Source: Ectocarpus siliculosus
Taxonomy: Eukaryota; Sar; Phaeophyceae; Ectocarpales; Ectocarpaceae
Direction: 5' to 3'
Assembly (NCBI GenBank): GCA_000310025.1
Contig: FN649734.1
Coordinates: forward strand, 5,603,349 to 5,667,348
DNA: 64,000 nucleotides
In this document: in pieces, positions 14,859-54,806 of the stretch
Position numbering within the stretch: the first letter of the stretch is position 1
Layout of the letters: the number at the start of each line of letters is the position of its first letter
Notes under the pieces: generated by a model
The model's database searches: none
Told to the model about the DNA's origin: nothing
Seen by the model: the letters and a program-made list of their open reading frames with translations, nothing else
Translations under genes and position numbers: made by a program

Positions 14859-17858
14859 ATGGCTGCGTTCGATAAAATTGTTTCCCTCCCACCCTTGCCG
14901 GTCCGTTGTCCACCGTCCAATCTTTATGAAGCGGTTTCGACACCCAGCCCAACTACTAGCCCCACGTGGAACCTTGTTCCCAGCCCCACTCCCGTCATTG
15001 ATAATCGCCTCCTACTCAGCCCCGTGTGGAGCACACAACCTCCCACTCCCACCCCCAGTTCTGGCCCATCGACTGCGACGGGCTTTACCCCCGATTCGCT
15101 GGGGTGCTACGAGGACGACCGCGAAGACCGTATCCTGGACGATCTCGCTCTTTCCGACGACTCCATGACAACCGAGGTGACTAAATCGTTGTTGATGTTT
15201 GTTGAAACGAAGAAGCACAGAGGCATGCTTGTGAGGATTTCCTCGTCATCACGTCCGGACTCGAACCTCCGAAACTCTCTCCCTAGTTGACGTAAGGATA
15301 TCATGCGATCAGGGACTAGCTAGTGTCCTTGCTGAACTGCTACAGGACATATCAAAGGTACCACCGTCGACTGGTAGATGTTTTGCAGTTTCCGGTCACA
15401 TGTCACCCTAAGCGGACAATAACACCCCACGTTCACGTTGATCACTCATGCATACACACGTAGAAGACTGGCCTCGTCTAGGATTTTTTGTTTCGGCAAC
15501 ACCCAATCTCGTTATGGTTTACCGCCATGATGTTGTGTGGCTATTACAATATGACCAAGGTACTGGGTGGCTGCCAGACGCGGGTCTACGCTCCTGCGAT
15601 GTACGTTGCGCCTCTAGCAGTTAAGAGCTGCGTGAACCCTGTCCTGTAGCCTGTAGCCATCTCGTTGACCACCGCCTTTCCCTCTACATCGTGCTGAAAA
15701 TTGATGTTCGCCTGTTCGTTCACCGAAATTCCCTCCCGATTCTGCCGTGTTGTGCCGATACATGTTTCGGACATCAGCTGTGCGAGCTGACATGCCTCGG
15801 AAGCACCTACTTTGCCACCCAGTACGGGCGAGAGGTGAGTTAGCGTCAAAAGGATAGAGACCCGCCCTGATAAATATCTCTCACGAAATATTTCTGTGAA
15901 GAACGTTCCGCAGACACACGTCGAACCTGTTTTGGATGTGTCAAGTCAAATCATCTCCTTCCTGCGATAGGTCCGAATTGCGTTCAACATATACATGCCG
16001 AGGTCAAGGAGACGCTCGCACCATTTCTGTCTCTGGCCGTTTGTATTTCTTTCCATTATTTTCCACGACGTTCGAGTATCGCGTTTGGTAGTCCTCCGTA
16101 CGTTTGCGGATGTCTGGGTGTCGACCGAAAGGCACAGGACGTGCACCAAGAGACGCCCCGAGTAGGTGAGAACGGTTTGTCAAGGTGGATAAACTAGCAA
16201 CGACGACGACGACGATGACGTCAAGCAGAGTGTTTTGCATACAAGAGCAATGAAGGCTGTTCTAAGACAGATTTTCCTCGGGCATCAGACGAATGGAGTA
16301 AACACAGGCGAGATTTCCGTTGAACACGGTCAGCGTAAGAGCTTGAAGATAGAGGACGGACTCCGTGGCCGTCATTCAATTCCATAATGATGAACAAAAC
16401 CCTGAGGTTGAACTTGTGAATCGTTGTCGTCGACGCGTTATCAAAAGCATTGGTCCCAAGCAGGTGTTCTTGCGACTTTCTGTCTGTCAGCCTGACCGAA
16501 TGGTCAGGCCTTCTTCGTCTCTACCGAAGCGCACACATGCTGGTGTGTGTTTGTTGCCTCTGCCAAACGCATTCTTGGCCAAAACCCCGCATCGCACCCG
16601 GTTGTCTGTGTTGCCTCTACCTGAAACAAACACACGCAGTGCTGGTGTGGTTCGGCGGGTATGGACTACGCTTTGCACGGGGAGTCCACCGACTGCACCT
16701 ACGGCTGCGCGGGGAACGCTGACCAAACGTGCGGCGGGTTCGACGCCGCCAACGTCTACCGCTACACGAACGAGAGCACTCCGACGTCATCATTCGTGGG
16801 ATGCTACCAAGACGAGTCGGACGCCCGCATGATGGAACTCGCGCTGACGGACAGTTCTTCTATGACCAAGGAGGTGCGGAGGAGTGGTTCTGGTTTGTTC
16901 TTGTAGAACATGTTAAATATACTCTCTTTTTGAGTTCCATGCTAAGTTACATCGCGGTAAGTCCTCCCGATTTACCTTCAAGTAGTGTGCTGGTTTTGTA
17001 TCCCATGCTAAGATAAACCTCGGTCAATTTATCCTGATGTGACCAGTGTGCTGATCGCTCAGACAACTCACGCGCCTAACTCTTTGAGGAGTAACATCAA
17101 CGGCGTTTCGATGTGGAACTGTTGAAATTTCAGTCTTATTTTAGCAGTGAAAAGCTGCTTCTACTCTTCCCCCTGGTATGGAGTCTTGATATCGGTTGGT
17201 TTTGCAGATGTGCGAGGCAGAGTGCACCGGAAACAGGTACTTCGGCATGCAGTACGGGAGCGAGGTAAGAGGCGGTTCCCTGTGATATAACCGTGGCAAG
17301 AATCAAGTTGACGTTTCTACTGTGATGGTGACGAAGGATTTTGTCGTGTGGTTTGGCAAGCTAATGTCTACTGCCCCGTGTCCGTGGCCAACACTGTTAA
17401 CCTTGCCTAGCAGACGAGGCAGAGAAATATCCAAACGCTGGTGACCGAAAAAACACCCGGTTATCGCCGGTCGCTGACGCCACTTTCCCACTTCCCGTGA
17501 GTTCCTAATATTGAATCACTGTGTTCCGATGTGTCATCCAACAACAGAACTCGTACCAGCACTAGTTACGAGAGCATACGGCAAACATCGTCGCTGGACA
17601 TGACGCAACAAGTAAGGGTTGAAATGAACAGTAGTGCTGGTGGCACCTACTTAGCAACACCCAAATTGATTTTTCCATTTCATATTGTCGCCATGTCTGA
17701 CGGCCATGAATCGACTCCAACAGTGCTTCTGCGGCGGGAGCTCAACCAACCTCTTGGAGAACGGGGAGTCAAGTGCCTGCGACTACGAATGCCCGGGGGA
17801 CTCGGAGCAAGAGTGCGGCGGATTCTACGCCATGAGCGTGTACTCCTACTACTCGTAG
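14859..17858 (+). CDS. protein with Pro/Ser/Thr linker and two WSC domains
   Basis: Exons 14859..15176, 15778..15834, 16640..16873, 17208..17264 and 17724..17858, all joined in phase 0, stop TAG at 17856. A Pro/Ser/Thr-rich linker precedes two WSC domains, each split over three exons. WSC1 is SLGCYEDD, then a 19-codon exon (CELTCLGSTYFATQYGRE), then CWCG...CTYGCAGNADQTCGG. WSC2 is VGCYQDES, then CEAECTGNRYFGMQYGSE, then CFCGGSS...CPGDSEQECGGFY. WSC is a Cys-rich carbohydrate-binding module found in wall sensors and in extracellular enzymes, and it is abundant in brown algae. The protein ends straight after WSC2 with no membrane anchor. The ATG at 14859 lacks a signal peptide, so a secretory first exon probably lies upstream. 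The coding content and exons are secure; the start is not. Confidence 0.8.
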
Positions 17859-19020: not shown

Positions 19021-27745
<8,725 letters not shown>

Positions 27746-28196
27746 CCAAGTCTCGAGAGACACAAGTACCAGAACGCTTGCGCACGTCCATACGATCCCA
27801 GGGTGCCCACCGTGGGACCCCCTAGCTTCGGGAGACATAAAAACGACGGGGAGGCACAATCAGAACCCGCACGATAGCTGGCCCAGTCCTCCGTCAGATT
27901 TGTTCTGACAATTGAGGGTACAGCCTGTCAGATAACGGCGTAACGCCTGCTCTGCTGGTTCCGCAGTAGGTAGCACGCCTACGCTGGCGTTCTCTCGTTC
28001 TAGGTCAACAAAACCTTATCCGTTCCCCCGTCACACTCGAGGCGAGCGGTTTCGAACTTCGAACAACAAACTAGAAACGCAAGGAACCCTGATACACCAG
28101 CCCCAACGCCTACACACAAAAACATCGACGAGACCACAACGAACCTCGCAAACAAACAAACAACAACCAGCGCTCAACAAAAATGTCCGATCAAGC

Positions 28197-31100
28197 CTAA
28201 CCTAGCATCCATTCTGACCTGTTCCCTCGCATCACCACGAACGGGTTCGCCTCATCCGACCGGTCCGACTCTATGCAGAAGCCTGAATCGCGGAACCCCC
28301 AGGAGCCTACCGCTTCCTTATCGCCGTCCACCGCACCGAACCAGCCATCGTCGTCTTCCACAGCAGTAGCGGGTTCGGGTTCGCCACCGTCACGGCCACG
28401 ACCACTCCGCCGTGAAACCGAGACGGACTCTGCCGCAGCCGCCGCCGCCGCCGAGGCGGTCTTGAAGCCGGCCTCAGAATCGTCATCAATGGCGGCGAAA
28501 TCGGCACCGTTTCCTTCGGCATTGTTTCCGCGGGGATCGTCCCCGCCACAACCAAGAGACAGAGCGACAGAGGCGAGGAACAAGGAGGGGGCGCCGCGGA
28601 CAGCGCCACCACATCCCCGCACCTCCGACCGCGCCCCCTCTTCGCCTTCGCTTGAGCCTGAAGAGTGCTCCGCTCGCCACGCCCCGCCTTCGTTCGCGTT
28701 TCTCATGAGGACCTGCAGCACATGGCCGGGGCTGGGTCGAGAGAATCCCCTCTCGACTAACGCCGCCCGCGCTTCCGCCACGGCGCTTTCCGCGCGGTCG
28801 AACTCGCGCACGACAGCTGCCAGCACGCGTCGCGAAGCGGCAGAAGAGGACCGAGCATCTTCTTCTTGGTTCTCGCCGTCGCCATCGTCGTCACCGTTTC
28901 GCCTCGAGTACCTGCAGTAGCTGCCTCGACTACCATCGCCATGGCCATGGCCGTCGTCGACCGAGGGTGTTGTTTCGAGCGACGAAGTTGCCGTTTCCTC
29001 GGACGGCGTGATTTCGAACGAAGAAGGGGACGACGAGGCGGTGGTTGCTGCCGTGCAGGGCGTTGCTCCGTCATCGTCCAGAGACGAAGTCAGCTCGAAG
29101 GACGACGGTGTAGAGGACGACGAGCACGACGACGTAGACGCGCCGGTGGCCATCACCCACGACCGGGAGGAAGACCCCGAAGAAGATTCGGTCGAACGCG
29201 GCGAGTTCCGCGCTGTCTCAGCGACGGCGGCAGCGGCGGTGTCGGCGACAACGCCGGCGTCGGCGTCAGCCCTGGCGTTAGCGGTGCTATCGCTCAGCCA
29301 AAGAGTCGAACGCTGTCCAAGAATGACGCCCTTCTCATTCTCCTCGCGTCTCGCAGCAAGCCTCGCTGCGGAATCTGCCGTCGAAGTAGCAGCCTTAGAA
29401 GATAGCGGTAGCGGCGGCACGAGCCACTCTGCCCACCTCGACCAACTTCGACTGCTGCCGCCGCCATCTCTACGCCCGTGACTCCTCAGCCTGTCGTGCA
29501 AGAGATGCACCCATTGCAGGTGGTTCATCCACGCCTCCATATCGTCGGAGGCGGGGGTCGCGGAGGAAACAAACCGCTCGACCGTCGGCACGTCGCTGGC
29601 ATAGCGCGATGTTGGTAACGGTTGTGGGTTTGAGATGGGGTAGGCCTTATCTGACCCCTGCTGATGGAAGAAGCGATGTGCCAAAATGTCACACCGCGAG
29701 GTGGGAAAAGGAAAAGGGGGGGAGAAGAGCAAGGAAGGTTGTAGATTACGAGTCTAGCCTCGTGTGTTCACAAAGTCGATGAAGCGCCGAAGAACATGAG
29801 GTTGGGGGGTAGCAATACATCCATGATTTGAATCCTCGAGCCCTCGAATCCTTCGGGGGGTCCGTGGTGTCAAACATAAAGGAACATGGTCCGAAACAAA
29901 CAAGAGGATCGGAATCTATGCTTGGGAAAGGCACTAATTACCGCTCGACCACGTGCCAATGCAAGGCTACGGCCACAGATGTCACTCCGCTGTTGCCTAA
30001 CGCTGCTGTGCACGCCTTCGTCATCGCGGCCGGATCGCGTGCCAATCTCACCTTCCCATTTCTTCGGACCCAGACACCACGACAACAGCTATGGCAAAAC
30101 CAAACAATTGCTTCTACACTCAAAATGCCAGCGTTTCAACCTTCATCCCGGGGAAACGGAACACAAAAATATTGAAGTGACCTCCACATCGGACGCGGGA
30201 ACCAATCAGATTGCAAGCGGTTAAACGGACGACTCACTTCACCGATCCCGTCGTCCACGTCCCCTTCCCACACAGTCCCGCCCAGCTCGTGGATGCACTC
30301 TCGAACGTCACCCTCTTCCAACCCGAGGTGCCCGCTCGCCTCCCGGACGTGATAGGGGGTCACCACGGTGCCTGACCGGTGCCGACGCCGCACCTGGGTG
30401 TTTCGTCACGCATAGGCATACGGGGGTACGCGGTCGGAAAGCTGGGGTCAGCAAGACAGGAGACCTGCCGTACGTGGGGCACACGGGGGCGACAAGTCCA
30501 AAACCTGTGTAGGTTTACGCGCACATCGCTCGAGATTCGGTATTCGAAATGGTGCAACGAGACTTCTGAAGTCCTCCAAGACCAAGCGAGTATAGACAAT
30601 GAAGTGAGGAATAAGGTAAAGGCTACGGCATGCAGCAAGAGCACCAAACAACACCAGCTGAGTCCCTGGCCACGTTTGGTTCTGGTTCCCGTAAAGCTAT
30701 GCATACGATGCCGAATAAACAAAAGGCGAGACCCGATGTGTGTCTGATGGGTGAGGCCGTCATGATCAGCGCAGCTTTGGTGAAAACAGACCCCAAGCCG
30801 GCCAAATGACACAGACACAATCCAAGGTCGACTGACTGCACCGGTCAAGTCAGCAGGTCATCAGGCCAAAGAGAGTTCAAAACGAAGTAGAACATTGCCA
30901 TCATTGTCGTGAAAACGCCTACAATGGTCACAAAATGTTCCAGCACAACTCTAGAGCCCTGAGCCTGTCGCGGCACCCGCGGGACGTCTGGGTGTTCATC
31001 CGAAAGAGCGAAAATGCTAGGGAGTGGGACACAGCAGCATACAGTATCCAGTACAGCCCACGAGAAGAGAAGCACAAAGAAAGTGAAAGGCGCGGCGGAA

Positions 31101-34100
31101 GCTCTCCATCTTCCCCGCACACAGCGTGGGTGCTCGTACACAAGGAACTCGTACATTCCACGGGCAGTGTATACAAGATGGATAGCTCGCATGTCTTGGA
31201 CCCCTTGGTGGTACAGATGCAGGCTTCTCTTATACAGAACATTCACCGCTGCTGTTGCTGGCTTTCCGTTCGAGACCAAAAAAGGTACTTAACACCGTCG
31301 TTGGTGAGAAACAATTATTGTAGCGAAAATTCACCTCGAGAAGGGCGGCCTTGACGTCCCCCCCGGGGTTCAGCGCCACCGGATCTCCCGCTCGCATCAA
31401 GACCTTGCCCAATCGCACCCGACCGGACAGGGCTTTCATCGTCCACCTGAATAATCATCACCATCATCACCATCATCATCATCATCCCCATCACGATCAG
31501 CATCAGCATCAGCATCAGCATCAGCGTCAGCGTCAGCGTCAGCATCAGCATCAGCATCAGCGTCAGCATCATGCGACGAAGCGAACCACGTCGAGTTCCA
31601 CAGAACCGTGTCAAATAAATTCGCCCCAAGACGAGATATTCATGAGTCGGCGAACCACATCACCCATCACAGAAGCACGTCTAAAAGTCTTGCACTAGCG
31701 AGACTTCGAAGGTCGCCAAGGGTTGTTTCTAACGTAGTCGCAGCGGTCGATTCGATAGAGGGAGCCAACCTCCTACATTTACTGCATATGTTTGCACCGG
31801 TTGGTATTTTTGGCCATGGTTCCGTCGGAGATCCGTGTCTTTCTCCAAAACGTCAAATGGGCGATAGTTTGTGTTTCGTTCTGGGATAAAGTACCAGGCC
31901 ACGCGATTCATCCATATACTTCTCTTCGGACCGATGCTACGCCACCTAGAAAACGGTAAGGTTTGAAAGACGATTGAACGTCTTCCAATCCAGTTAATCG
32001 GAAAACGATTCTGCAGAAAGATTGTCAATTGTGTGGTACAAGACACAGGATGCCAACAACGCAGGTCTTTGTTCTTAACCGCGCTTCTGATGCGCTTGAA
32101 TCAACACTACACTACATACAGCACGGTAGCACCGTCTTCTACGAGCTAGTCAAAATCAGCAAAACGTTTGTAACCGCTGTTGGATATCTTCTGCTCCTTC
32201 GTTCGTTCGGAAGAAATTTGCAAATTCACTCCTTCTGCATGAAGAAGATGTGCGAAAGCAGGCAATCTCCGCTCTGTATCACCGATACCTCTACACACCG
32301 TCTATTCCCGCCCTGTCGCATAGAGCGCGTTCAAGTCGCAGAAAAATGCGTTCTGGCCCAGAGCACGTGCAAAAACAGTCACAACTCCACTCACACATTA
32401 CGTTTCCCTCTCCCGTTCACCTCAACAGTCCCGTCAGGCCGACCGCCCCCACGGTGTGCTGTCCGCGCGCCGGAGCCCCCCCCTCTCCCGCTTCTCGAGA
32501 GCAACCCCTGGCTAACAGCTCCTCAGCTAGTCTTCGCTGCTCCGGTACCCGCTCGTAGCTGATCGACACAGGCACCAGCCAAAGCGTCGCGCCCTCCCGT
32601 GCTCCCTAGACCGGAAATACAGCCGCGACAACGGGGGGGGGGTACTCATTTTTTTGCATGCCTTAGGCGATAGACCGTTGACCGCGCGACCTCGAGAAGA
32701 TGGAGCAGAGAACGGGGGTGGGGAGGTACAACAGTTGGGAAAACAGTTGGGGAAGGGTGCGTTCGAAACGGCACCGTCGTCGGCATCCCCGTGCGTGGTA
32801 CTTACGCGATGTCATCTCGTTCAGGCTTGCTTCAGGGCACCCATCTCGTCACCGTTGGTAGCCGTACGAGTAGCAAAACGAATACAAGGAGTAGCAGTGC
32901 TGTAGCGAGGGCACTTTCTTAGCCAATCCGTGGATAATGGATGGGTTGACACACGATACACACCACCATCACACCAGCCAAAGAGGCCTTCAACGGGATC
33001 CACGTACATCACATCACGGACAGAAGAAAAAAAAACACCGAGACCGTCGATGGGTTCCAGTTCCCAGACAAACCAAATAATACATCTCATGCACAGCCAA
33101 GTTTTAGCAAGACTCTAGTACAGCTGACCGTTACGTTTGGTTTGACATTAATGGCCACCACCTCCAGCGGAGAAGTTTCCAATGGATGGAGGCGAAGTTG
33201 GGCGATCGAGATCGAACCCCAGGCGGCATCTCTGACAGTCGTTACTGCACAAACACACACAACAAAAACACTCATACTACGTGCGGCACAACATTCACAT
33301 GCACGGAACGTAGGTGCCCACCTGAAGAGCTCGGATCAACCCCGTCTTGGGAGCCAGAAACCGCCTGTCCCGGCTGCGTGTCCCCTCCACGAACACCTCC
33401 AAGGTCTCCAGCCCCCTCTGGCAGGGGTCGGACTCGCAGGGACCCGGCCAGCGTCCACCACCCCCACCCCCACCCCCACCCCCGTCCGCGGACCCCCCAA
33501 CGTTGCCATCAGACGCTGCTTGGGGATGATGGCCTCCTACGCGCTCGTTACCGCTCGTGTCTCGAGAGTCACCTGCCACGTCTCGGGTCACTGCCGTGCC
33601 GTCACACACGATGCCCTGCTCTCCCGAAGGAACTTTCTGGGAAGTTTCTCCTTCGCCGCTGGCGACTTCCTGCAGCGCCTCGAGGCGCCGCCGGAGGTCA
33701 GAGTGCGGCTCGCTGTTGTGCCCCCTCCGAATGAAAAACGCCCCTGGTTTCGTGGCGGTAATATCCAGACGCGACGAGACAAGTATTCCCACACAGCAGT
33801 CAACCAGCCAGCTGGAGTTTGGGCTGTTAATTGATTCCGCAGATCGTCATGTGTACAGCACGGTAAAGAGGAAAAAACGAGGACCCCCCCCAAAAAAAAT
33901 GAACGATCCGAGCACATTCTTTAAGAACGACACATTTTTCTACCTAGAATCACCAAACACCGCCCCCCGGAGTCCAACCTCGACACCATCATAGCTCACC
34001 CAATTTCCCCATGAGCCACCTGAGCGGCGTACCGTCCTTGCCGAAGGGCCCGTCCGCCGCCGCCACCTTCGGCACCCTGAGCCACGACAGCCCCGGGAAG

Positions 34101-34294
34101 GACCGCATGGAGGCGCAGAAGAGGGACACCAGCACGAAGTCAAGATACGAACGGTGAGTAGGCAGCAGGACAACCACCATCTTCCCGGCCCCGTCTGCTT
34201 CTCCGCTTCCCGCCCCTGCGCGCCCTCCGCACCCGCCGGCTCGCCAGCCGTCCCCACCGTCAGCACCGGCCGCAGTGGCACCAGCAGTACCTTT

Positions 34295-34325
<31 letters not shown>

Positions 34326-37300
34326 ATGTAACCACCGTCGCTGCCACACCCGCCGCCCGCCGCCTTACTGTCAACACTGGGCGCCGTCGCCGCGCCGTCT
34401 TCCTTGACCCCGTCGCCTCTCGCGGACCCCGCCCGGCTTGCGCCGCCCGCCGCAGCACCGTACCCGGGGGGCGCGGCCTCGCGAAACGAGTCCACGTCCA
34501 CGGCGACCGCCGAAGCGGAGCGGGACATGACCACTCGGACGGCGAACGCCACGAGCCGCACCCAGAGAGTGACCCCTCCTCGCGCCGCGGACCCCGGGAG
34601 GGTGGCCGCCCACCACGCTAGGGCGGGCCACGGTACGAGGCGGTCTGCCCTGCCGCAGAGCACGCTGAGCGACCGCCGCCGCCGTCGCCGCCGCGTGAGC
34701 CAGTCGCCAGCACCACCGACCCCGTCATCGTTGTTCTTCTTGGCGGTGGCACCGTTTGTTTCAACGTCATCGCCGTTGTGACCAAGGGGACGCCCACCGT
34801 CGCCGCCGTCGCCGTCTTCTTCTTCTTCTTCGCCAACGGCGACGCGGTTACCCTCAGGGGCGCCACCGACCTGCAGGCTGGTTCCGGTGTCGTTGCCGCG
34901 ACCGCCGCACCGAAGACCGCCGGACCGGTGGGTGCGTATTTGCAGGCCCAGCTCTCTGAGGATGGACTGCCGGCGTTCGGGACTAGCCTTTGCCCCTTCT
35001 TCGGCGCCCCCGGGTCTGGGAATACCGCACGCCGGGGGTGCGAGGAGAACAAGAGGCCAGACGCAAGGAGCAACAGCAAGCAAGCAATCGATGATAACAT
35101 GCGCGAACGAAGAGCAAGCGTCACCCTTTGGTATGGTAAACACGCATGCGAAACAACAAAAATATGAAACAATTTTATCGTATCGCGCCGATCGGCGTGG
35201 CGAGGGGGGAGAAGGGGTTTGACTGCGGGTCGAAACGCGAAAGGATTGAAAGGGTGCAGCGACGTCACGTCAGGGGTGAAACATGGCGCACTGTTCTCAA
35301 CGCACGACCGCGCAGCATGCAAACCAAAACACGGAGATGCCGGGCCAGGAGGACAACAACAGCAACAACGAGCGGCGTCATGGTGCGCCATCTGGGTTGT
35401 ATCCATCCCTGTCAGGGCAGTCTACAGGAGCCTTGGGGAGAGGGATCGTTTCCTATCCTTGTGGCTCCACCTCGGAACGAGTGCCATACATGCTAAAATA
35501 GCAGACACAGAGGTACCACGAACAAGAGGCACGACCGTGTCACAGTATAGGTGGGCAAAAAAAAAACAAGACGCCAACGGCAGTAGTGTCGAACCGATCC
35601 CAAAAAAACGTACCACACCGTAACACGACACCACATGAGAAAAACCACTCACAGGCTCCGTTGCAGTAGCTCGGAGGCCAGGGCCGTTTCCAACGCATAC
35701 CCGGCAGGCTTCAGCCCCTCGGGAACCCTTAGCGCCGAGTCGAAGAAGTACTCCTGCCACGTGAACGTCTCGTACACGGCCGGCAGGGCGGCCAGCTTGT
35801 CGAGCCTTCTCAACGTCACGGTAATTCCTGTGCGTCGCCGCCCACCTCTGCCACGGCCGCCGCCGCCGCTGCCGCCGTGTCTATAGCCGCTGCTGCCGCC
35901 GAAGACGCCAACCCGCTCGGCCAGGGCAGCGAGGCCCTGCAGCGCCCACACCGGCGACCGGTCGAGCAGCAAGTGCATGGCGTCGAACGCCAGCCGCGGC
36001 AAAGACGGTCTCAACCCTCCTCCACGAAGGAGTAGGAGCCCCGCTTCACGCCTCCCCTGGAAACCCCCGTCGCCGGCGGTCGGAGGATTGCCCCGTTGGC
36101 CTTCACCGCTGCCCCCTGACGGCGACGGCGGGTACGGCGACTGCGGGCGCGACCGTGACGACGACAACCCGCCGCCGCTTGTATCACCGCCGCCGGCGAC
36201 GCACGGTGTTCCGGGCGCCGTCGCCGCCGGCGACGACACCGACGCCGCGGCGAAGGAGGATCTCATCGCCAGGGCTTCCAAGGAAGGCCGCATGCCGCGG
36301 AGGACGGCGTAGTCGTAGAGCAGCCCCGAGATCTCTCGGAACGACGGCATCCTCCCTTCCCCCGCACCGCTCCCGACTGCACCCTTGCGCTCAGCAGTCC
36401 GTCCGGCCACCACGGCCGCCATGCCGCCACCCTCCTGCGCAGCGTCGCCACCGCCGACTGTCGTGTCGCGCTTCCGAGCAACGATAGCGCCGCTACCGCC
36501 GAGACCGAGGACAGGGTGCGTCGCCCACGCCAAGTTCCTGATTACCACGTCGGGACGAGATTCTGCCGCGGGCGACCCCGGGATGTCCGGGATCGCCGCC
36601 ATGATATTCCCGGTGGCGGCGGCGGGAGAGGAGGATGCTAGGGGCCCTCCCCAGCCAAGCGCGCTGTGGACGATCGCGCGGCTGACGACATCGACCGGGA
36701 TGATCGGGGCCGGGTGAGGGCCTAGCCGGAAGGTCTTGACGGCCCTCTGGAGAACCAGCACTTGGCAGCCTGTTCAAGTAAGCGCACACGCACATGTCAG
36801 CCGCGGGCATTTTCAGCGAACGTGGAACTTGAGGCCGGTGGAAAGTTGGTTACCGGCGTCACTCATGTCATATCTATCCCCTGGGGCGCATTCTGTCCGC
36901 GGATCTAAACGAAGCGCAAGCACAGCCCGGGGCAGCGTTGACAACCAGCGGCCATGGAAAATTAAACGGAGCCCCCTCTGGGAAGCGACGCTAGGGGACT
37001 TCATCCCCGAGGTGAGATAGACGGAGGGCCGATGGAGGAGGTTATATTTGGGGGGGAAGCAAAGGGGTCTCGGACACGAATTCTCGTGCATGATCCCCTC
37101 ACCTGAGATCAAGGGGGATAAATAAGCACGTGTACCCTGCATGAAGGGTGCATTTCCTGCGTCGTGCGGGCTCAGCTTGACCTGACTTATCACATGGTGG
37201 GGAAGGTTGACATTTTTCCGGACACCTTTTATACCCCGGCCGGAGTGTGTGTGTGTTGCAGCGGGAGCGTTTTTCCTGGGAGTCATCGCCTCGGCATACG

Positions 37301-40300
37301 GCATACCTAGCGTGGCAGCTCTTGCCTGCCGCCATTGTTTAGGGATCCGATAAGCAACTCATCCGGCAGTGCAAAGCGCCAAGATATACCCTCGAAGTCC
37401 TGGACTCGGGTCGCCAACCGGAGACGCAAGGGCCTGTACAATCAACCGTTACGGGACGGGGGCTCCCCAAAACCCCTTCGAAGCGCTGAACGAGTTAGAA
37501 TACTATAGAGAGCAGATCTTTCTCCACTCAAAGATCTGCTGTCTGTAGTATTTTAGCTCGTTCGGCGCTTCGATGGGGTTTTGGTAAGCCCGCGGCCCGT
37601 ACCGGTTGAACCAAATGGAGAGGTCCGCGGGTCTCCGGCTTGCGGACCGAGTCCAGGGCCTTGGATGCATCTCTTGGTGTTTCGCACTGCCCCTGGAAGA
37701 GCTGCTTTATCGGATTCCGAAACGATTGAGGCCGACAAGAACTGCAACAATTCATTGTCTCCAGCGCACTCTCTCAGCGACGACTTGTGGTTACTATTTT
37801 CCCGCTCACACGCATGACGTCAAGCGCCATCCATCACCCTGGCCTTTCTCCCCCAAACATGCCACCCCGGTACAAACACAATCCCGGCACCCCCCCACCC
37901 CGGCGGCTCACCTGTAACTGTCGAGGGTTGCTCTCCCGTCCACCCAGGCCACGGGAACACCCAGGCCGGTCCAACGATGCTCGGCCGCACTACCCTCAGC
38001 CGCAGTCGGCAAGGTTCCGGCGAACCACAAGAGTCGCCACTAGAACAACCGCGCCCGCCCGCCGCCAGCCGCCCTCCGGCCTCATCATCACCGCTCTCCT
38101 CGACATCGGCAGCGGCGGCAGCGGCGGCCGACCTGTCCAGCCTCCGATTGTGCGCGCTCAGCGCCCGCACAAGCAGGTGCTCGCCGAGAGCCTTCGTAAA
38201 GGTGTACGTGTTCGGGTACCCCAAATCCGCCATGGCGTCGAGGGCTTCCTTTCCCGCCCCGCCGCCCCCGCTGCTACCTCCGCCGGCGTCTGAAGCTGAG
38301 GGGGCCCGCTGAGCGCTTCGGTACAACCGTTCGGGGCTTCTGCCGCCAAGATCGGGGAGCTCTTGGGGGAGGGGGCACGAAGCTGTGCCCGACTTTCCGC
38401 CGTGGACGAAAGCGGTCGAGACGTGTATCAACGTCCTGGGGGTGGTGTGGTGTGCACGCGCGGTGGACGGGGGAGGGGGGTCAATCAGGCAATCGCATGC
38501 CGTAGGCGGTAGACCCTAGACCTCGACATCTCCACAACGCCGGTACGCAATGGTTTTCGCCGGCCCGGCCAATACCGCATAAACAACCCTCATGCCCTAT
38601 CCAGCCACCGAATGAAAGCCGAGGGACGGCAGTGTGGTCAGCGACGTTGACAAAGCGTGTTGATTGAATCGCCATCGTGGATGGATCTCGGGTGCGGTAC
38701 CACTTGGCCTCGCTCTCCCCTCTCCCATCTTGATCGTTCCGTCTACACGCCAGCAGGACGATTTTGTCTAGAAAGGGGTCTGGGGCGGCCGCATGACAGT
38801 AAAAATGGTGGTGCGCCACAAGCTCCAAGATCGTGTCACAGTAGTACACAGATTAACACTTGTCCTCGCTCATGACTATGTACCTTCAGGTCCAGCAACG
38901 GCAGCTAGGCTAGCCACAGGGACGTGGATCATAGTTCATGTGTGTGAGCGTACTTCTTGCAATGCGAATTGGCTCGGCGCTAGGCTCTTTATGTACCATA
39001 TGTGTCCTTGCGGCGCCCGTTCCCCCTCTTCGGCGATGTGACACGCCGGACCCGTTCAGAGCACAACAACAACGATCTTGAGCTTGAGCGTACGACTCAA
39101 AAACGAAAACAGTGCACGGGTTACGTCCCAACCCCTCAACCCGCGATGCCACCCAAGAGCTTGCACTCGACCGCTGCTGCACGACCAACCTCAACAAGAG
39201 CTACCATCTCACCCGCATGACGGCCAGGACGCCACGAGGGCGGCCACCCTCAGTGCACCGGTAACGTTCGTCGCCGCCGCCTCCGCGAGGGGGTCGCTGA
39301 AGCTCACGCTCGCGGCGCAGTGCAGCGCGTGGGTCACGCCGGCTCCCGCCAGCAGCGCCCGCGACTCCGCCGACAGCCCCAGCCCTTCTCCGCCCAGCTC
39401 GCCTTCTACGGCGATGACCACCGCTCCCTGCCGCTTCTTCGGCGGGAGACCAAGGGCCTCACGGGACGGGGGGCACGGCAACGGCGACGCTCTCGCCGCG
39501 GAGGGAGTGTCGGTCTCTTCGTCCACCCAAGCCCCGCTCTCTCGCAGGGGGCGGAACATGGCGCTGTCCCTTATGGAGGCCAGTCTGTCCGAGGGGGCCA
39601 CGCCCTTCTTGCCCCTTACCAGGACCACCACCGCGCGGAGCCCCCCCGACGCCACCCCTCCCAACCCGTCTTCGCCGCCGCCAAGACCTTCGCGGGCCTC
39701 GCCGTCGTCGCCCGAAGCACCGCTCGACGCCGCGGCTCCCTGCCGAAGCAGGTCGAACAGAACCATCTGCCCCACCAACCCTGTGACGCCCGTCAGGAAC
39801 ACCACCGCCCCGCTACCCTCGGCCGCCGCCGCCGTCGCCATTGACCCCCCGTTCACGCTGCCACACCCTCCTCTGACGCCATTCCCCGCGTCGGGCATCA
39901 ATCGGGGGGCGCAGAAGTCCCGCGACGCCCGCGTGCCCGGCCTGAACAGGTACCCGACGGGGTCGTCATCCACGCACGCCTCCTCCGGTGGAAACTCCTC
40001 GGATATCCCGCCGCAGTCGTCTCCGCGGCGGTTGCTGCTAGTGCTACTGCTGCCGTCGCCGCTATCTCTCCCCGCACGTTCACCGGGTCCGAGAGCTACC
40101 CCTGCCGCCGCTGCTGCTGCTGCTGCTGCTGTTGCGCGAGACAGGGCCTCGGGCACGACCGGACTCTGGGCGAAGATCTCTTCTCGCCATCGCGCCACGC
40201 GCACCGCGCACCACAGGCACCCGGCCCCTGCCGCCGCCGACAGAACCCAAAACAGCACAACAGCGGTCAAAGCTCCCCACCAAGCACCCAGTACCTGCCA

Positions 40301-40626
40301 AACGCTTGGCCAACCAGGGGAAGGAGTGTTTTCCTCTTGCACTTCGAGTGCCCCCCGATCTCCCCCGCGGGCCAGAGCGACCACGACGGCTAGCGCCACG
40401 GCGACGGCCACCTTCCCAACGCCGACGGCACTCGCCCCCGGCCCTGCCGAGCAAGAACGTTCCGCAGAACGACGATCATCCATCTGTCCCGCCTGTCCGC
40501 CCTCCGCATCTCTCCCCGCCCGCCGTCGGAGTCGCTCCGTGCTTCGTTCCCCCGTCCCTCTCGTAGCCGCTGTCGGCTCCACGTGTGGACTGGCGAGATC
40601 AAGATCCCCACCACCACCACCGCTGG

Positions 40627-40669
<43 letters not shown>

Positions 40670-40873
40670 TCTATTACTGCTGTCGACATGTCGCGGAGCC
40701 GACACCTCCGCTTCACCACCATTGCCTGCTGCTGCTGTCGCTGCTGCTGTTGCTGCTGTTTGAGGTTGCCGGTCGACATCGTCGTGTTGGTCGTAATTGC
40801 TCGCAGCCTCCCCAAAGCCAGCCGCTGGCGCGGGAGTGACGTGAGCGTCGGTAGGGAGAGGGGGATGAGCCAT
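28197..40873 (-). CDS. fatty acyl-CoA reductase fused to DHAP acyltransferase (FAR-GNPAT)
   Basis: Nine exons: complement(28197..29660, 30238..30393, 31335..31446, 32421..32605, 33322..33743, 34000..35015, 35653..36769, 37912..38435, 39213..40873), about 2,218 residues, every junction phase-consistent. Start chosen at the ATG 40873 (MAHPPLP). Residues 1-340: low complexity with a poly-Ser tract and two hydrophobic segments. FAR part: NADPH-binding TGVTGLVG (about 358), VLVRGKKG, HCAASVSFSDPL, HVSTAFVHG, catalytic YTFTK, VRPSIVGP, IIPVDVV, then a C-terminal FAR region to about 1100. GNPAT part: LPTHRSYLDF (HxxxxD), GAFFIRRG, VEGTRSRDRRFLAPKTGL, LVPVSISYERV, MRAGDPVAL, TVVTPYHV, then a long disordered tail. 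FAR makes fatty alcohol; GNPAT makes acyl-DHAP. The join (35653 donor to 35015 acceptor) keeps frame (phase 2). A short exon between MRAGDPVAL and TVVTPYHV may be missing. Two separate genes remain possible but would need an unseen stop and start. Confidence 0.85.
31450..31572. repeat. CAT / CATCAG-CGTCAG minisatellite in GNPAT intron
   Basis: A (CATCAC)/(CAT)n block passes into about 14 hexamers of CATCAG and CGTCAG. It lies immediately upstream of a GNPAT exon acceptor (31447), in the intron. Confidence 0.9.
32630..32696 (-). repeat. dispersed G-run repeat, copy 2
   Basis: Poly-G, TACTCATTTTTTTGCATGCC, TTAGGCGATAGACCGTTGACC, then CGCGACCTCGAG. Same order as the copy at 9321. Lies just outside the GNPAT exon that begins at 32605. 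Confidence 0.6.
37335..37715. mobile_element. ~380-bp fold-back (inverted-repeat) element in FAR intron
   Basis: Left arm about 37335-37521 and right arm about 37535-37715 are reverse complements at roughly 75 percent identity, separated by about a dozen bases. Shared words include GGATCCGATAA, GGCAGTGC, CTGGACTCGG, CCGGAGAC, CAAAACCCC, GCGC(T/C)GAACGAG and AGCAGATCTTT. It would form a long hairpin in RNA or DNA. No terminal target duplication could be fixed. It lies within the FAR intron 36770-37911. Confidence 0.7.
38468..38590 (-). repeat. dispersed G-run repeat, copy 3
   Basis: Poly-G, GCATGCCGTAGGCGGTAGACC, CTAGACCTCGACATC, CACAACGCCGG and CCGGCCCGGCC. Lies in the FAR intron just upstream of the exon beginning at 38435. 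The TACTCAT word is degenerate here. Confidence 0.55.
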
Positions 40874-43800
40874 GCGTTGTGCTCGATGGCTGTGCAACTC
40901 TAGATACCACCGTAGTGAGCTTTGTGCAATACTTCGGTGGCGCCACACTGCAGCTTGGAAGGAAACATGGTCTCGCGTAAAGCAACAACCAAACACCGGT
41001 CAATACAGCATAAGACGATGCTGCCGCTAGCAATGCCGATTGGCTTCGATGCGGGTGCCTACCGCCTTGAATAGGTCTCCAATTCTTCAACTGCGCAACG
41101 ATGAGAGGTGCACGACGGAGTACTAAATACGTGCGGGGCGATGTCTGCCGGCCGACCATACGTTTTTCGCCCTCCCTGCCCCCTGTCGGACCGGCTAACT
41201 AATATTTTTTGCCATGTTCGTGTTCTTGTTTCGCCAAAAGCGCATCGATCTGACATACGGTCAGTACCTCCGCCTTCCATACCACATTACATAGTCCCAC
41301 CAGCGAAACACCAAATGCTGACGTGGTGATCGTAACCCACTCGACCAAGGTACCGACAAAGGCAATAGAAAAAAAGGCGAAAGCAGTCAACAAAATCGCG
41401 GCGAAGAAACGAGCTATTGTATCTACAAACACAATACGAGTGACGCCACAAGACTAAGAGACCGATGTTTCCTCCCCCTTTCCGTTTGTGACCAGTCTCT
41501 ATACCGGTGGCTGCTCACCTCTGTTCTCAGGACACACAGCATCGGCTACCCTGCAGTACCGCTGCATGGCCTCCGATACTCCAAGCCCTTCGCACGACTT
41601 CCAAGAATTCCTGCGCGAGTGGGGTGCGGGACGGCGTTGTGATGGGGTTGAGAGAGAGGTGGTGACTGCGGCCGGGGCGGCGTGTAACGCGGGGTTTGTC
41701 GAGCATGCTGGCGACGGGGGGACGGCGTCATGCACACCACGGGGACCCTACCCTAGAGTCATCCCTACCATCAATGAGGTCCCACGTCCATCGGTATGTC
41801 TTATGTCTTACGACCGAGCGTCTACAACAATGCCGGCCCGTCCCTTCTCCCTGAACGGCTGCAGTGTATTCATTGACAGAGAACTCAAACAGGGACAACG
41901 CGACCACAACAGAGAGCCCCCAATACTTGCCCCCCCCGCCGACAAACACACCACAACTGCGAGTGTTGGCATGGGCAGAAGGTATGTAGAACAGCACACC
42001 ATAGTTGACATTTGACTTTCACGTGTAAACGCAGTATGACTGCAAACCCATACCCCTTTTTCTTGTGAGGTGTGACGTGCACGAACCGCAACACCTACGA
42101 GCACTTCTTGGGGGCTACTGAGGTGCGGCCCCACAAGAGCCGTTCAGAAAACGCGTCCTTCTGAAAAGCAAAAGCACTTGGGGGTGCCGGCTGGGTATGT
42201 AGAACTAATGACGATGGTTTGTACATCCGGGAGCACACACACCGCTCCTGGGAAGACGCTCGGCTAAAAAAAACGCCCGACAAACAGCCATAACTCCACA
42301 CACAACACACAGCCGAAGCATTAACTTGACGACACATTGGCTTCTCAGACAGGGCAAACGGTTCAGAGTGTTGTAGGGGTGTAAAAGCTGCGCTATGAGC
42401 GGAGCACTCTGCTCACCACTTGGCTCGTCCGGTGGGATCGAAGAGACCAGGCCGTTGCGAGTGGCAGTCACCGAAGGAAGCCTGCTTGTACAGCCCGTAC
42501 AGAACGAGTTGCTGCGCACGGCAGAGCCGCGGCGGCGGAACCGGAACCGGAACCGGCAGCGGCCGGGGGGGGGGGGTTACCAGATGCGAAAAACCATGTC
42601 ACCTCTAGAACCAATGAAGTCGTGCAGCACTTGAAAGCGACCTCTTGCAGTTCTCCCCACTTCCTAATTCCTATTTCGTGTTGTGGCCCCGACCAAGCGG
42701 AAGTACTAAGCATTGCTGCGGCGAGTTAGCCCTGAAAAAACTAGCGTCGTGAGCTGCTGCTGGATGATGCTACAGGGTGCCTACACTTCCTGTACATTGC
42801 GCACCGCGCACAATTTATTGCAGCATGATCGTGAAAGGCAGCATATCGCGTTTAAGGAAACACTCTACGCCACTATCCAGTAACCCTGTGACCTGCGCCA
42901 CGATGAACCTCAGGTCGGTGTTCAGACTTCAAAGGCACCTTGGTTTTCTCTATGCACCTGACTGACGAGAGTGCAAACCGACTAAGGGGTAACACCGACT
43001 GCTACATGTTGATTGCGAACTTGTTCGTGTTCTCTTTTGACCTTGGGGAAATCGTTGGTCAGAAAGAACAAAATGTGCAGCGAGATTTCTTCCGGTTCAA
43101 ATTTCACGCTCACATCTTGAGTCCCGACTGCCGGACCGGTCCACCTGCTCACTCGCCCAACGGTCGCCTCGAAGAGCTGCTGTATCGACCGACCAGTTCC
43201 ATTCTCGGTCTTGGCTTGTGGCGGAGCCGTGCCACCAGCACTTCTCCTCTGGTGGAAGCAATAAAGAGCAGAACCCCAGGACCAACGGAGAAGCGATACG
43301 ATCATCGAAAAGGCTGTATCAGGTCTCAAAACGTCGTGTAGACAGGAAGGCGTCGGTGTCTGGGGAAATCGATCACGACACTCGAGAGAAGTGCAACTAA
43401 AGCTGTCACAGGGCAAAAGTACTGTAGTCTAGAGCTGTAGAGCGGTAGGGCGATTTTTCGGCAGAAACGTTCACGGTGCTTGTGTGGCGGATGAAAGGTG
43501 GCGTTGCCCACACGTGAGACCGTTTAGTGTGAGCTGTCGATTGCAACCGTTTTATAGCTGGCATGTCCGGTGCCCTGCACTTTTCATCAACGCCTCGCAG
43601 TACAGCGTAGTTTTCTTGTCCCGCACCGGAGTCGCAAAAAGCCTCATCTATCTGTAGGTTGATAACATTACGGCAGACTGCATCTTAGCGCTACCGCCGA
43701 AACCTTCGGCTCGATGACAAGAGAAGAGGCACAGGTTGTTGCGCACGCAGGCTCTCTCTCTCTCTCCCTCTCTCTCTCTCTCCCTCCGCAGCACCTCTCG

Positions 43801-49459: not shown

Positions 49460-52400
49460 CTGCAACTTTCCCTCCGCCGGTCGTGTCCACTTCGGGCCCT
49501 GGGAGGCGGCGTGATGGGGCCGGGGAAGCGGCGGCGCCACCATCACCGTTGTCGGGGCTTTTCGCAGGCTAGAGACACAAGACAATCGTCGCAAGACAAC
49601 ACGGAGAAAAGCCAGGAGTAGAGGGAAGCGCGGGGGGGGTCGGTGGCTAGGCACTCGCCAGGCGGGAACACTGGGGGGGGGGGGTCTCGGGTGTCGTTGG
49701 CGGCAAGTCCGCTGCAAGTACCTGGTAACAGCAACCTGATCAAAGGGTTAGCACGGATCACCACAGAGGCTAAGGAACGCTAGAGGCAAGAAAGACGGCA
49801 GCGTACTGAGAGAAGGTGCAGCCTCTGCTGAAAAAACGGCCTTTGAATATTCCAGTTCTGTCAGGTGACGGCTTTACCTCCGCCATTTTTCTCCCTCGTG
49901 ACGGCGGAGTCGAGATAAATCTATCTTACTCATGCGTGATATTGCGAGGTGACAAGTCGGCAAGCGCAAGCAACCGGCATCCAAACGCATACACGCCACC
50001 ACCGTCTGTCCTGACCGACGCCCCCCCCCCTGCGCTCCCCGAACAGACAAGTCTTGACTCGACATCAGCGAGAGACAAATATTCACTGCTTCAAGCAATA
50101 CGGTCTAAACGGCATCGTCGTCACGTCAGCACACGACCTGCACGACCCCCCAACATCCTCGCGAGACGCTTACATCGTGGTCCCGGTGTGTTTCGACTCC
50201 GTCTTCCGTGCGCTGCCGCTTGGCCCTGCCCTGCTCCTCCTCCACGTCCATCGTCGGCGCTGCGGCAACGGCGCACGAGCTTTGGCAGTCTGCTGCTGCG
50301 CCCGGCCTTGCTTCTTCGACGCCGATATCCTCCTTCGCGGGGGCGCCAAGCTTGCCGGCCGTCTCGCCCGTGTCTTGACTCGACATCGCGGCCGGCCGCT
50401 CCTTCTCATGGTCAGACGCAGCCGCCCCGTCCGTTTCCTCCGGCGGTGCTTTTGCGGCCATCTTCCTTAGCCTCGTCTGCGACTCGCTCTCTGCCTTCGC
50501 CACAATGCCCTTCGACGCCGACCTCGCCAGTGGCTCCGCCACACCATTGGCACTTGCTCCCTCGCGCTTCGCCGCGCCTCTCTTTCTCCCGGACAAGCGA
50601 GCTGGCACCGCTCCTACCTCAGAGCCACCGCCACCGCCACCGCCACCGCCGCCGCGGACCCGTTGCGGCCCGGGCCCCGAACTCGTACCGCCACCCCCCG
50701 CGGACCTGTTAGCGGAAGAAGAACGGGGAGAGACCGACCGCGACTTCGGCTTACGGGAACCCTGAAGCATACGCTTGTTGCCATCGATGGCGTTCTGGGA
50801 TGCCCGGCGTCGTGTACGCCCCGCCGGGTGCGGCTCCTCCGCCGGAGATAGCACACACCCCGAAGCAGAGTCGCCGGGGAGGGTGATTCCGCCGGGGTTC
50901 CAAGCTAGTTTCGAGCGAGAGTTTCCGGGCCGACCACCGCTACCGCTGCCGCTGCTGCTGCTGCGGGCATCGCCGCCACTGCCGCCGCCGGTGTTACCGC
51001 CGCCGCAGCTGGTGCTGTCATCGGTGCCGTTGGTCCTGCCACCACCGCTGCCACTGTCAACGCCGCCGCTACCGAGGCTGCTGCTGTTCACGTCGCCGCT
51101 GCCGCTGCTGCTGCCAGCACTGCCGCCGCTGCTGGTGCTATCATCGGTACCGTTGGTCCTGCCACTACCGCTGCCACTGCTGCTATCGTCGCTGGCGACG
51201 ATGCTGGTGCGGGCTCCGCCGCCACTGCTGCTGTCATTAGGGTCCCCGCTGCTGGTGCTATCATCGGTACCGCTGGTCCTGCCACTACCGTTGCCACTGC
51301 TGCTATCGTCGCTGGTGCGGGCTCCGTTACCACTGCTGCTGCTATTAGCGTCCCCGCTGCTGGTACTATCATCGGTACCGCCGGCAATGCCACCGTTCCC
51401 GTTACCACTGTCGCTGCTGCTGCCAGCGCCGCTACTGCTGGTAACGTCATCACAGCTGCCACTGCTTCTTCCGTCGCCGGTACCACCGAGACCGCCGCCG
51501 CCGCTCCTGCTGCCAGCACCGCTTCCGCCACCGGTCCGGCTTCCGTCACCGCCGCCGCTGCTGCTAACACCGCCGGCTGCAGTCGTCCCCCTCTCCGCAC
51601 CACGTTCTGCGCTAGCACAGCCACCGTCGCCGGTCGCCTTGCCGGATGTTTGGTCTTGTTCGGTCGAGCTGCCATCGGCAGCGGGATCGCGCGGCTTCTT
51701 CTTCCTCCCGCCCTCTTGGCGGCCCTTGCCTCTTGCCCCACATCTCGGCAGTTGCTTCTCCCCGGCGCAGGACGTCCAAGGGAGTTTCAAGAGTCCCGGC
51801 TTAGCCTTGCTGTCATCACCGTCGCCGCCACCACCGCCGAGGCCGTCGCCGTCGCCAGGAGCACCCGCGGCCATTTCCCGTTGCTCGTCCAGCTTGCTGG
51901 GTGTTGCTTGGTCAAGCGACACCGGAGATGAATCGCGACGACGCTCAGACGAGCCAGGGGAAGACGGCGGGAACGGCGGCCTGTCCGTCTCGCTTCGGGA
52001 AGGCGTAGACCGGGACCTTGATCGTGCCCGTGCCGGCGTCGGTGTCTTTGACTGTACAGGTGTCCGTGACCGCGACTGTGACCTTGACAGTGGCGGTGTC
52101 CATGTCTTGGATTGTACCGGTGCCCGTGTCTTCGACTGGACCGGTGTCCGTGAGCGTGACCTTGACCGTGAGAGTGCCCGTTTCCGTGTCGGCGGCCGTG
52201 CCGGTGTCTCCGGTGTCCGCGAGCGCGATCGTGACGATGACTGCGAGCGCGATCGTGACCGTGCCGGTCTGCGTGCCCGTACCGGTGTCCGTGTCTGGGA
52301 GCGTGCCGGCGTCCGTGAGCGCGATGACCATGACCGTGACCGTGACCGTGACCGTGACCGTGACCGTGACCGTGAGGGCGATGACCGTGTCCGCGACCGT

Positions 52401-54775: not shown

Positions 54776-54806
<31 letters not shown>

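What the first reader, a model, noticed from the sequence alone, without database searches (positions are those of the whole stretch)
28197..40873. Apparent single-gene fusion of fatty acyl-CoA reductase and DHAP acyltransferase
The last FAR exon has no true stop: its reading frame reaches TGA only by running through a GTGAGT donor (exon end 35653, phase 2). The next acceptor, CTCGCAC...TTCCCAG at 35016, supplies exactly the missing base, and the frame runs into LPTHRSYLDF, GAFFIRRG and VEGTRSR of a GNPAT-type acyltransferase. All eight introns of the model keep phase. From memory, a FAR-acyltransferase fusion is known in Dictyostelium; I am not aware of a characterised one in brown algae. Channelling of fatty alcohol and acyl-DHAP would be the obvious consequence.
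Basis: partly seen in the sequence, partly recalled or inferred. Interest (0 to 1): 0.86.

Follow-up and report, generated by a model that had tools for sequence, protein, structure and literature searches.

The report
Algal one-protein ether-lipid synthase gene
One brown-algal gene appears to encode a single long protein that joins an acyl-CoA carrier and the three enzymes that start ether-lipid synthesis, steps usually carried out by separate enzymes in peroxisomes.

Summary
The FAR–acyltransferase junction is real, but the gene spans about twice the stretch described. A 24-exon model on the minus strand (43305..19021) gives one open frame of 2955 residues: ACBP – two hydrophobic segments – fatty acyl-CoA reductase (FAR) – GNPAT/PlsB-type acyltransferase (AT) – alkylglycerone-phosphate synthase (AGPS). 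Four relatives, three named Ectocarpus, together run through these junctions. Of 165 sequences held, 101 (this one included) carry FAR, AT and AGPS, always in that order; named ones include diatoms, Triparma, dinoflagellates and Pycnococcus, some transcript-derived. A transmembrane-like segment precedes FAR in 91 of 93 testable ones; 0 of 99 end in a strict PTS1. FAR–AT fusions are already in print, but this AT groups with FAR–AT proteins of bacterial kind, whose genes lie next to AGPS in 17 of 20 bacterial loci, not with the PTS1-type fusions sampled. Ten literature searches, mostly seen as listings, showed no AGPS-containing fusion of this kind. Activities, location and channelling are inferred.

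The parts
43114..43305 (-). Exon 1 (ACBP, N-terminal part); start uncertain: ATG at 43305, or an upstream exon spliced to the acceptor ccaccag|AGGAGAAG before 43248
   Evidence: tblastn with P0001/P0003; sequence
42417..42511 (-). Exon 2 (ACBP core, [16 protein letters not shown])
41519..41610 (-). Exon 3 (ACBP, C-terminal part)
39213..40824 (-). Exon 4: linker, TM-like segments at aa 256-280 and 304-334, start of FAR with TGVTGLVG at aa 471
37912..38435 (-). Exon 5: FAR, YTFTK at aa 741
35653..36769 (-). Exon 6: C-terminal part of FAR; donor after 35653
34000..35015 (-). Exon 7: start of the acyltransferase, HRSYLD at aa 1498; acceptor before 35015
33322..33743 (-). Exon 8: acyltransferase motifs GAFFIRR and FVEGTRSR
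32421..32605 (-). Exon 9: acyltransferase motif LVPVSI
31335..31446 (-). Exon 10
30238..30393 (-). Exon 11
28219..29660 (-).
27221..27557 (-). Exon 13: junction to AGPS ([11 protein letters not shown])
26714..26842 (-). Exon 14: AGPS
26097..26237 (-). Exon 15: AGPS FAD motif PFGGGTSV; followed by the only non-GT donor (GC-AG)
25299..25486 (-). Exon 16: AGPS
24129..24225 (-). Exon 17: AGPS
23200..23358 (-). Exon 18: AGPS
22575..22691 (-). Exon 19: AGPS, CRLLDN (aligned to Arg419 of 4bby)
21819..21980 (-). Exon 20: AGPS
21003..21182 (-). Exon 21: AGPS, AYLRDF (aligned to Arg515)
20408..20536 (-). Exon 22: AGPS, GACVYFY (aligned to Tyr578)
19597..19711 (-). Exon 23: AGPS, HHHGIG (aligned to His615-617)
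19021..19169 (-). Exon 24: C-terminus ...GGVKAET and stop; no PTS1 tripeptide

Best explanation
The locus is one gene for a multifunctional starter enzyme of ether-lipid synthesis: ACBP – membrane hairpin – FAR – DHAP-acyltransferase – AGPS. Proposed working: ACBP binds acyl-CoA; FAR reduces one acyl-CoA to a fatty alcohol; the AT puts an acyl chain from another acyl-CoA on dihydroxyacetone phosphate; AGPS (FAD) swaps that acyl chain for the alcohol, giving alkyl-DHAP, which a separate reductase would pass on. Shown: the open frame, splice sites, all modules above Pfam cut-offs, conserved key motifs. Inferred: the activities, DHAP as acceptor, channelling, and anchoring in a membrane by the two hydrophobic segments before FAR (a hydropathy call only).
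For: One frame of 2955 residues over 24 exons with one terminal stop, 22 GT-AG introns and one GC-AG. Pfam on that chain: FAD_binding_4 4.1e-37, FAD-oxidase_C 1.2e-29, NAD_binding_4 2.2e-29, ACBP 1.1e-20, Acyltransferase 3.1e-10, all above the curated cut-offs. The AGPS module matches solved mammalian AGPS at 3.2e-120, with the residues aligned to R419, R515, Y578 and H615-617 conserved (numbering counted by me; PDB titles name R419H and Y578F mutants; that these residues are catalytic is recalled). YTFTK in FAR and four GNPAT/GPAT-type AT motifs are present (compared with a bird DHAPAT, P0148). Of the 101 proteins in which my profiles find all three enzyme modules (this one included; 165 sequences examined), all 101 have the order FAR, AT, AGPS. 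Listed whole fusions come partly from transcripts: P0079 (MMETSP), P0092 (MMETSP, Chaetoceros sp. by its taxid), P0096, P0113, P0135 (Trinity). TM-like segment before FAR in 91 of 93, against 12 and 2 of 93 in two control stretches at the same threshold. In M. xanthus AGPS and FAR–AT lie in one operon, and mammalian GNPAT and AGPS act as a complex (passages of PMC9131029).
Against: No transcript from this species was available; P0001-P0003 are unnamed products of genome records, P0001 ends in exon 11 and P0002 begins at exon 6. Pfam finds no FAR_C (PF03015) or GPAT_C (PF19277) domain in this protein up to E = 1. NCBIfam hits of the AT in three relatives are far below the equivalog cut-offs; PlsB models come first in all three, but the PlsC-type AGP_acyltrn model is close behind in P0038, so the acceptor (DHAP, glycerol-3-phosphate or lyso-PA) is not proven. 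In M. xanthus disrupting the AGPS gene of the comparable operon lowered ether lipids only slightly, the main route being ElbD, and the part of the FAR–AT protein is described as suggested, not established (passages). I saw no brown-algal ether lipid in the listing (20 of 74 papers shown, none opened).
Confidence: 0.8

Rival explanations
1. A two-domain FAR–DHAPAT fusion only, ending at 28197, of the Dictyostelium FARAT kind and working in peroxisomes.
For: The nine-exon model is open and ends in a stop; FARAT-type fusions are established (PMC3143110 section 7; PMC7375469 passages).
Against: P0002-P0004 continue past 28219 into AGPS in frame. There is no PTS1 at either possible end (EWMLG, KAET). 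The AT lies on the other side of a 100/100 branch from the PTS1-type FAR–AT fusions sampled.
Confidence: 0.07
2. Two or more neighbouring genes (ACBP–FAR, AT, AGPS) joined only by annotation and by my splicing.
For: No RNA evidence for this species. Reading past the 35653 donor gives a stop at once, so an unspliced transcript would give an ACBP–FAR protein. P0001 and P0002 are partial: one ends in exon 11, the other begins at exon 6.
Against: Same module order in 101 of 101 proteins, including transcript-derived ones; residues around the FAR–AT junction conserved in P0004, which also holds all modules.
Confidence: 0.1
3. The AT module is a glycerol-3-phosphate or lyso-PA acyltransferase, so the protein makes ordinary glycerolipid intermediates in addition to or instead of acyl-DHAP.
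For: The best NCBIfam models for the AT of three relatives are PlsB (glycerol-3-phosphate acyltransferase), with a PlsC-type model close behind in one; acceptor specificity cannot be read from sequence.
Against: AGPS, which uses acyl-DHAP (established enzymology), is on the same chain with its key residues; in bacteria a related FAR–AT frame lies next to AGPS in 17 of 20 loci.
Confidence: 0.1

Closest known systems
Myxococcus xanthus operon MXAN_1676 (AGPS) – MXAN_1675 (FAR1-like + GNPAT-like) – MXAN_1674
   Same: Same three enzyme modules; FAR and AT fused in the same order (passages of PMC9131029; M. xanthus strain AM003 locus L021). The AT of the algal fusions shares a clade with FAR–AT proteins of this bacterial kind (P0141, P0142, P0145, P0146); the M. 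xanthus protein itself was not in that tree.
   Different: AGPS is a separate gene upstream; no ACBP in the described operon; the FAR–AT proteins of bacterial kind that I read begin at FAR, without the hydrophobic segments; algal AGPS does not fall inside the clade of bacterial operon AGPS.
Dictyostelium FARAT (fatA) and Tetrahymena ART1, bifunctional FAR–DHAPAT fusions
   Same: FAR and a DHAPAT-type acyltransferase on one chain; FAR N-terminal in FARAT.
   Different: FARAT has 1279 residues, ends in SKL and is placed in the peroxisome lumen. The PTS1-type fusions P0017-P0019 list PF03015 and PF19277 and no AGPS domain, and their AT is on the other side of a 100/100 branch.
Peroxisomal AGPS (guinea pig 4bby, Dictyostelium 2uuu)
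   Same: FAD and active-site motifs; E 3.2e-120 and 2.2e-68 to the C-terminal module. The organism of 4bby is recalled.
   Different: Those are separate proteins; here AGPS is the C-terminal part of a 2955-aa chain.
M. xanthus ElbD, multidomain ether-lipid enzyme
   Same: A multidomain protein needed for ether lipids, with FAR1-like and acyltransferase-like domains (passages of PMC9131029).
   Different: The domains listed there also include ACS and ACP and no AGPS; I did not compare sequences.

Membership tests
FAR–AT–AGPS fusion proteins (group defined here) | FAR, AT and AGPS on one chain in that order | tested here: met
   101 of 101
FAR–AT–AGPS fusion proteins (group defined here) | AGPS module inside the clade of these fusions | tested here: met
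   clade of 22 rows at 100/99 in a tree of 53 rows
FAR–AT–AGPS fusion proteins (group defined here) | TM-like segment upstream of FAR | tested here: met
   aa 256-280 and 304-334; 91 of 93 in the group; hydropathy only
PTS1-type FAR–DHAPAT fusion (FARAT/ART1) | FAR and AT on one chain, FAR first | tested here: met
PTS1-type FAR–DHAPAT fusion (FARAT/ART1) | C-terminal PTS1 | tested here: not met
   C-terminus KAET
PTS1-type FAR–DHAPAT fusion (FARAT/ART1) | AT grouping with PTS1-type FAR–AT and DHAPAT sequences | tested here: not met
   100/100 branch between them; Dictyostelium and Tetrahymena proteins themselves were not in the tree
AGPS | FAD-binding fold and conserved Arg/Arg/Tyr/His site | tested here: met
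AGPS | alkyl-DHAP synthase activity | not testable with these tools
   needs an enzyme assay
FAR | NAD_binding_4 with TGxxGxxG and YxxxK | tested here: met
FAR | C-terminal FAR_C (PF03015) domain | tested here: not met
   no PF03015 hit up to E = 1; a stretch FTWQEYFFDS resembles FAR_C to my eye only
GNPAT/DHAPAT | acyltransferase motifs of the GPAT/DHAPAT kind | tested here: met
   read beside the bird DHAPAT P0148
GNPAT/DHAPAT | GPAT_C (PF19277) domain, which the DHAPAT and PlsB proteins list | tested here: not met
   no hit up to E = 1
GNPAT/DHAPAT | DHAP as acceptor | not testable with these tools
   needs an enzyme assay

The most novel reading that the evidence does not exclude
Ochrophytes and dinoflagellates carry out the first three steps of ether-lipid synthesis outside the peroxisome lumen, on one membrane-anchored multi-enzyme whose FAR–AT part descends from a bacterial AGPS/FAR–AT operon, independently of the peroxisomal FARAT fusion. 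This would break the rule that eukaryotic ether lipids start inside peroxisomes.
Probability: 0.4. Interest if true: 0.82.

Novelty: new variant of a known kind. Interest (0 to 1): 0.62.

Why it matters
It puts the committed start of ether-lipid synthesis on one chain, so that channelling, proposed for the mammalian GNPAT–AGPS complex (passage), can be tested in a natural fusion. The absence of PTS1 together with a recurrent hydrophobic segment makes the peroxisomal location of the pathway in algae directly testable. It also supplies a gene with which to look for ether lipids in brown algae, diatoms and dinoflagellates, where several database records carry only the name of AGPS.

Tried and rejected
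Rejected: (a) A bifunctional FAR–AT gene ending at 28197; relatives read on into AGPS. (b) A VKOR domain in the N-terminal hydrophobic part (E 0.065, below its cut-off). (c) The C19 gene with FAD-oxidase_C hits as a second AGPS: my AGPS profile found nothing in that locus at E 0.01, while the window's own AGPS exons scored between 2.4e-32 and 4.5e-6. (d) The idea that algal AGPS is simply bacterial: the tree leaves it beside guinea-pig AGPS with weak support (92/66). (e) A PTS2 signal: my regular expression, run on the first 60 residues of the 82 sequences with all motif anchors, matched one (P0090), not this protein.

Led nowhere, or weaker than hoped: the first TM count used a crude motif filter that dropped 90 of 137 sequences; I replaced it by profile-based classification. 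The clade-test command at the end does not exist in that module and failed; no AU test was run, so only branch supports are quoted. The structure model of P0031 (AT–AGPS, mean pLDDT 73.5, 11 sequences) matched AGPS structures, but the 50 rows shown held no acyltransferase. Own-genome family searches are blunt here: PF01553 (4 matches) and PF02913 (2 matches) both missed this gene's own exons, so they cannot show that the gene is the only one. Whether the genome holds a second, separate AGPS gene stays undetermined. FAR-like exons on contig C4 were not modelled as a gene.
Full report
1. Observation. Splicing the nine exons as described gives 2218 aa with one terminal stop and all eight introns in phase (my first assembly had three junctions one or two bases off and was corrected). 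Pfam finds the reductase and the acyltransferase on the chain. The FAR–AT junction is real at sequence level and conserved in four relatives.

2. The gene is larger. A search with the AT region of this protein, limited by length to long proteins and scoring only the 7986 candidates sharing most words, gave 22 hits. Three are Ectocarpus proteins with 94, 93 and 89% identity in that region (P0001-P0003) and one is a EukProt protein with 69% (P0004, organism not named in the listing). P0003 and P0004 carry ACBP, FAR, AT and AGPS; P0001 (ending in exon 11) ACBP, FAR and AT; P0002 (starting at exon 6) AT and AGPS. Mapped on the window they give exons from 43254 down to 19024. The assembled model has 24 exons, 43305..19021, 8868 coding bases with the stop, 2955 aa, 22 GT-AG introns and one GC-AG. 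The start of exon 1 is uncertain.

3. Modules. Pfam on the full chain: ACBP 43-116; NAD_binding_4, best stretch 523-757 (the Rossmann motif is at 471); Acyltransferase, best stretch 1492-1573; FAD_binding_4 2466-2605; FAD-oxidase_C 2658-2935. Motifs: [48 protein letters not shown], and the AGPS Arg/Arg/Tyr/His-His-His positions (alignment). AGPS residue numbers were counted by me on the alignment; their catalytic role is recalled, though two of them appear as mutants in PDB titles. Two hydrophobic segments, 256-280 and 304-334, lie before FAR. No FAR_C or GPAT_C domain is found.

4. Distribution. A search with the AGPS part of the diatom protein P0014 gave 157 proteins of at least 988 aa, 120 of them listed and held. 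Named ones include Seminavis, Nitzschia, Fistulifera, Thalassiosira, Cyclotella, Triparma, Symbiodinium, Cladocopium, Durusdinium, Prorocentrum and Pycnococcus (their grouping as diatoms, bolidophyte, dinoflagellates and green alga is recalled; Chaetoceros); many are unnamed metagenome proteins. With the hits I held 164 proteins plus this model. By my own profiles 101 of these 165 have FAR, AT and AGPS, all in this order; 16 have FAR and AT but no AGPS hit; 18 have AT and AGPS without a FAR hit; six have AGPS without AT. Among the 101, ACBP is found in 61 (58 N-terminal of FAR, two C-terminal of AGPS, one elsewhere) and a PLP-enzyme-like (DegT) domain in 78; of four brown-algal and Phaeothamnion rows checked (this model, P0003, P0004, P0006) all four have ACBP and none a DegT hit. 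Some listed fusions come from transcript assemblies (P0079, P0092, P0096, P0113, P0135). In tension with this, the 2011 paper reports the FAR–DHAPAT fusion absent from Thalassiosira pseudonana and Phaeodactylum tricornutum; neither name is visible in my listing, while T. oceanica, T. profunda and T. exigua are (the last with AT and AGPS only by its Pfam list).

5. Location clues. Of the 101, 93 have more than 120 aa before FAR (eight were set aside). 91 of 93 have a 19-residue window of mean Kyte-Doolittle 1.8 or more within 220 residues upstream (not P0051, P0100); the same measure gives 12 of 93 in a stretch after FAR and 2 of 93 after AT. At 1.6 the figures are 91, 34 and 12; at 2.0 they are 83, 7 and 0. 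Of 99 with an HHHG motif none ends in [SAC][KRH][LM], and one (P0064) matches a looser pattern. The FAR–AT proteins without AGPS from Chromera (P0017) and Acrasis (P0019) and the unnamed P0018 end in ARL, PKL and SKL, and Dictyostelium FARAT ends in SKL and is peroxisomal (PMC7375469, passages). The rows are related, so these counts are not independent trials, and the patterns are mine. A hydrophobic hairpin could also insert into the peroxisome membrane; the data do not decide.

6. Origin. A tree of the AT domain (52 rows that I chose out of the 159 with a hit) has one 100/100 branch with, on one side, 27 rows of the AGPS-fusion kind (some incomplete, for example P0009 without AGPS) and five FAR–AT proteins without AGPS, and on the other DHAPAT, PlsB and the PTS1-type FAR–AT rows (midpoint drawing). 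Four of those five begin at FAR and look bacterial. By my profiles 20 of the 80 have FAR and AT in one open frame, and 17 of these 20 have an AGPS frame directly upstream on the same strand; the other three (L027, L034, L035) lie within about 1.1 kb of a contig end. One of the 17 is Myxococcus xanthus (L021), where a review describes this operon (passages of PMC9131029). An AGPS tree of 53 rows makes the 22 fusion rows one clade (100/99); the 17 AGPS rows next to FAR–AT, with seven next to FAR alone and two SDR fusions, form another (100/93); guinea-pig AGPS sits with the fusions at 92/66 and Dictyostelium AGPS is a very long branch. So the AT speaks for a bacterial link, and AGPS does not settle it. 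Gene order is AGPS, FAR–AT in bacteria and FAR–AT–AGPS in the fusions, so more than loss of a stop codon is needed. The direction of any transfer was not tested.

7. Copy number. A search of this genome with the AT core gave four matches up to E = 1, all inside this gene. The corresponding AGPS search did not complete.

8. Print. FAR–DHAPAT fusions: PMC3143110 (passages; section 7 read). Dictyostelium FARAT: PMC7375469 (12 passages). In the cryptophyte Guillardia, FAR and AGPS are described as separate proteins with putative PTS1; FAR was localised to peroxisomes, full-length AGPS was not (PMC9244630, passages and one section). Myxobacteria: PMC9131029 (12 passages). I saw no report of an AGPS-containing fusion with FAR and AT in searches, mostly seen as listings; the library lacks most subscription journals and all preprints, so this is weak evidence of absence.

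9. Verdict. A single-gene fusion, larger than reported, belonging to a group of fusion proteins present in several algal lineages that I did not find described: a new variant of a known kind. The activities, the channelling and the compartment are untested.

Noticed in passing
P0038, P0090, P0110, P0029, P0025 (relatives), N-terminal part: A PLP-dependent aminotransferase-like domain (DegT/DnrJ) sits ahead of FAR, with a shared FGxIKTxT[AT]LGGG stretch that keeps a lysine; 78 of 101 fusions match my profile, which was built from three sequences, but none of four brown-algal and Phaeothamnion rows. Its role is unknown.
   Followed up: partly
P0014, P0129, P0120: ACBP lies C-terminal of AGPS in P0014 and P0129, two of the 61 fusions with ACBP, and in the AT–AGPS transcript protein P0120.
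   Followed up: partly
P0112, P0114, P0122, P0123, P0127: AGPS on one chain with short-chain dehydrogenase domains and without an AT hit; one is named a Leptospirales bacterium. Possibly AGPS joined to the next reductase of the pathway.
   Followed up: no
window 54386-58396, minus strand: Long open frame with a weak JmjC match below its cut-off (E 0.0022); next to a 1419-codon arginine/serine-rich open frame at 50126-54385 without a Pfam match.
   Followed up: partly
window about 16625-17855, plus strand: Short cysteine-rich open frames (for example CPGDSEQECGGFYAMSVYSYYS) that look to me like WSC domains; not tested against a library.
   Followed up: no
G000 contig C4, 28640-31614 (L015): Three further NAD_binding_4 matches close together, two of them also seen by my FAR profile: probably another gene of this reductase superfamily.
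   Followed up: partly
L036, L038, L039, L041, L042, L044: Spirochaete records with an AGPS frame directly upstream of a FAR frame and no AT hit, a second bacterial arrangement.
   Followed up: no
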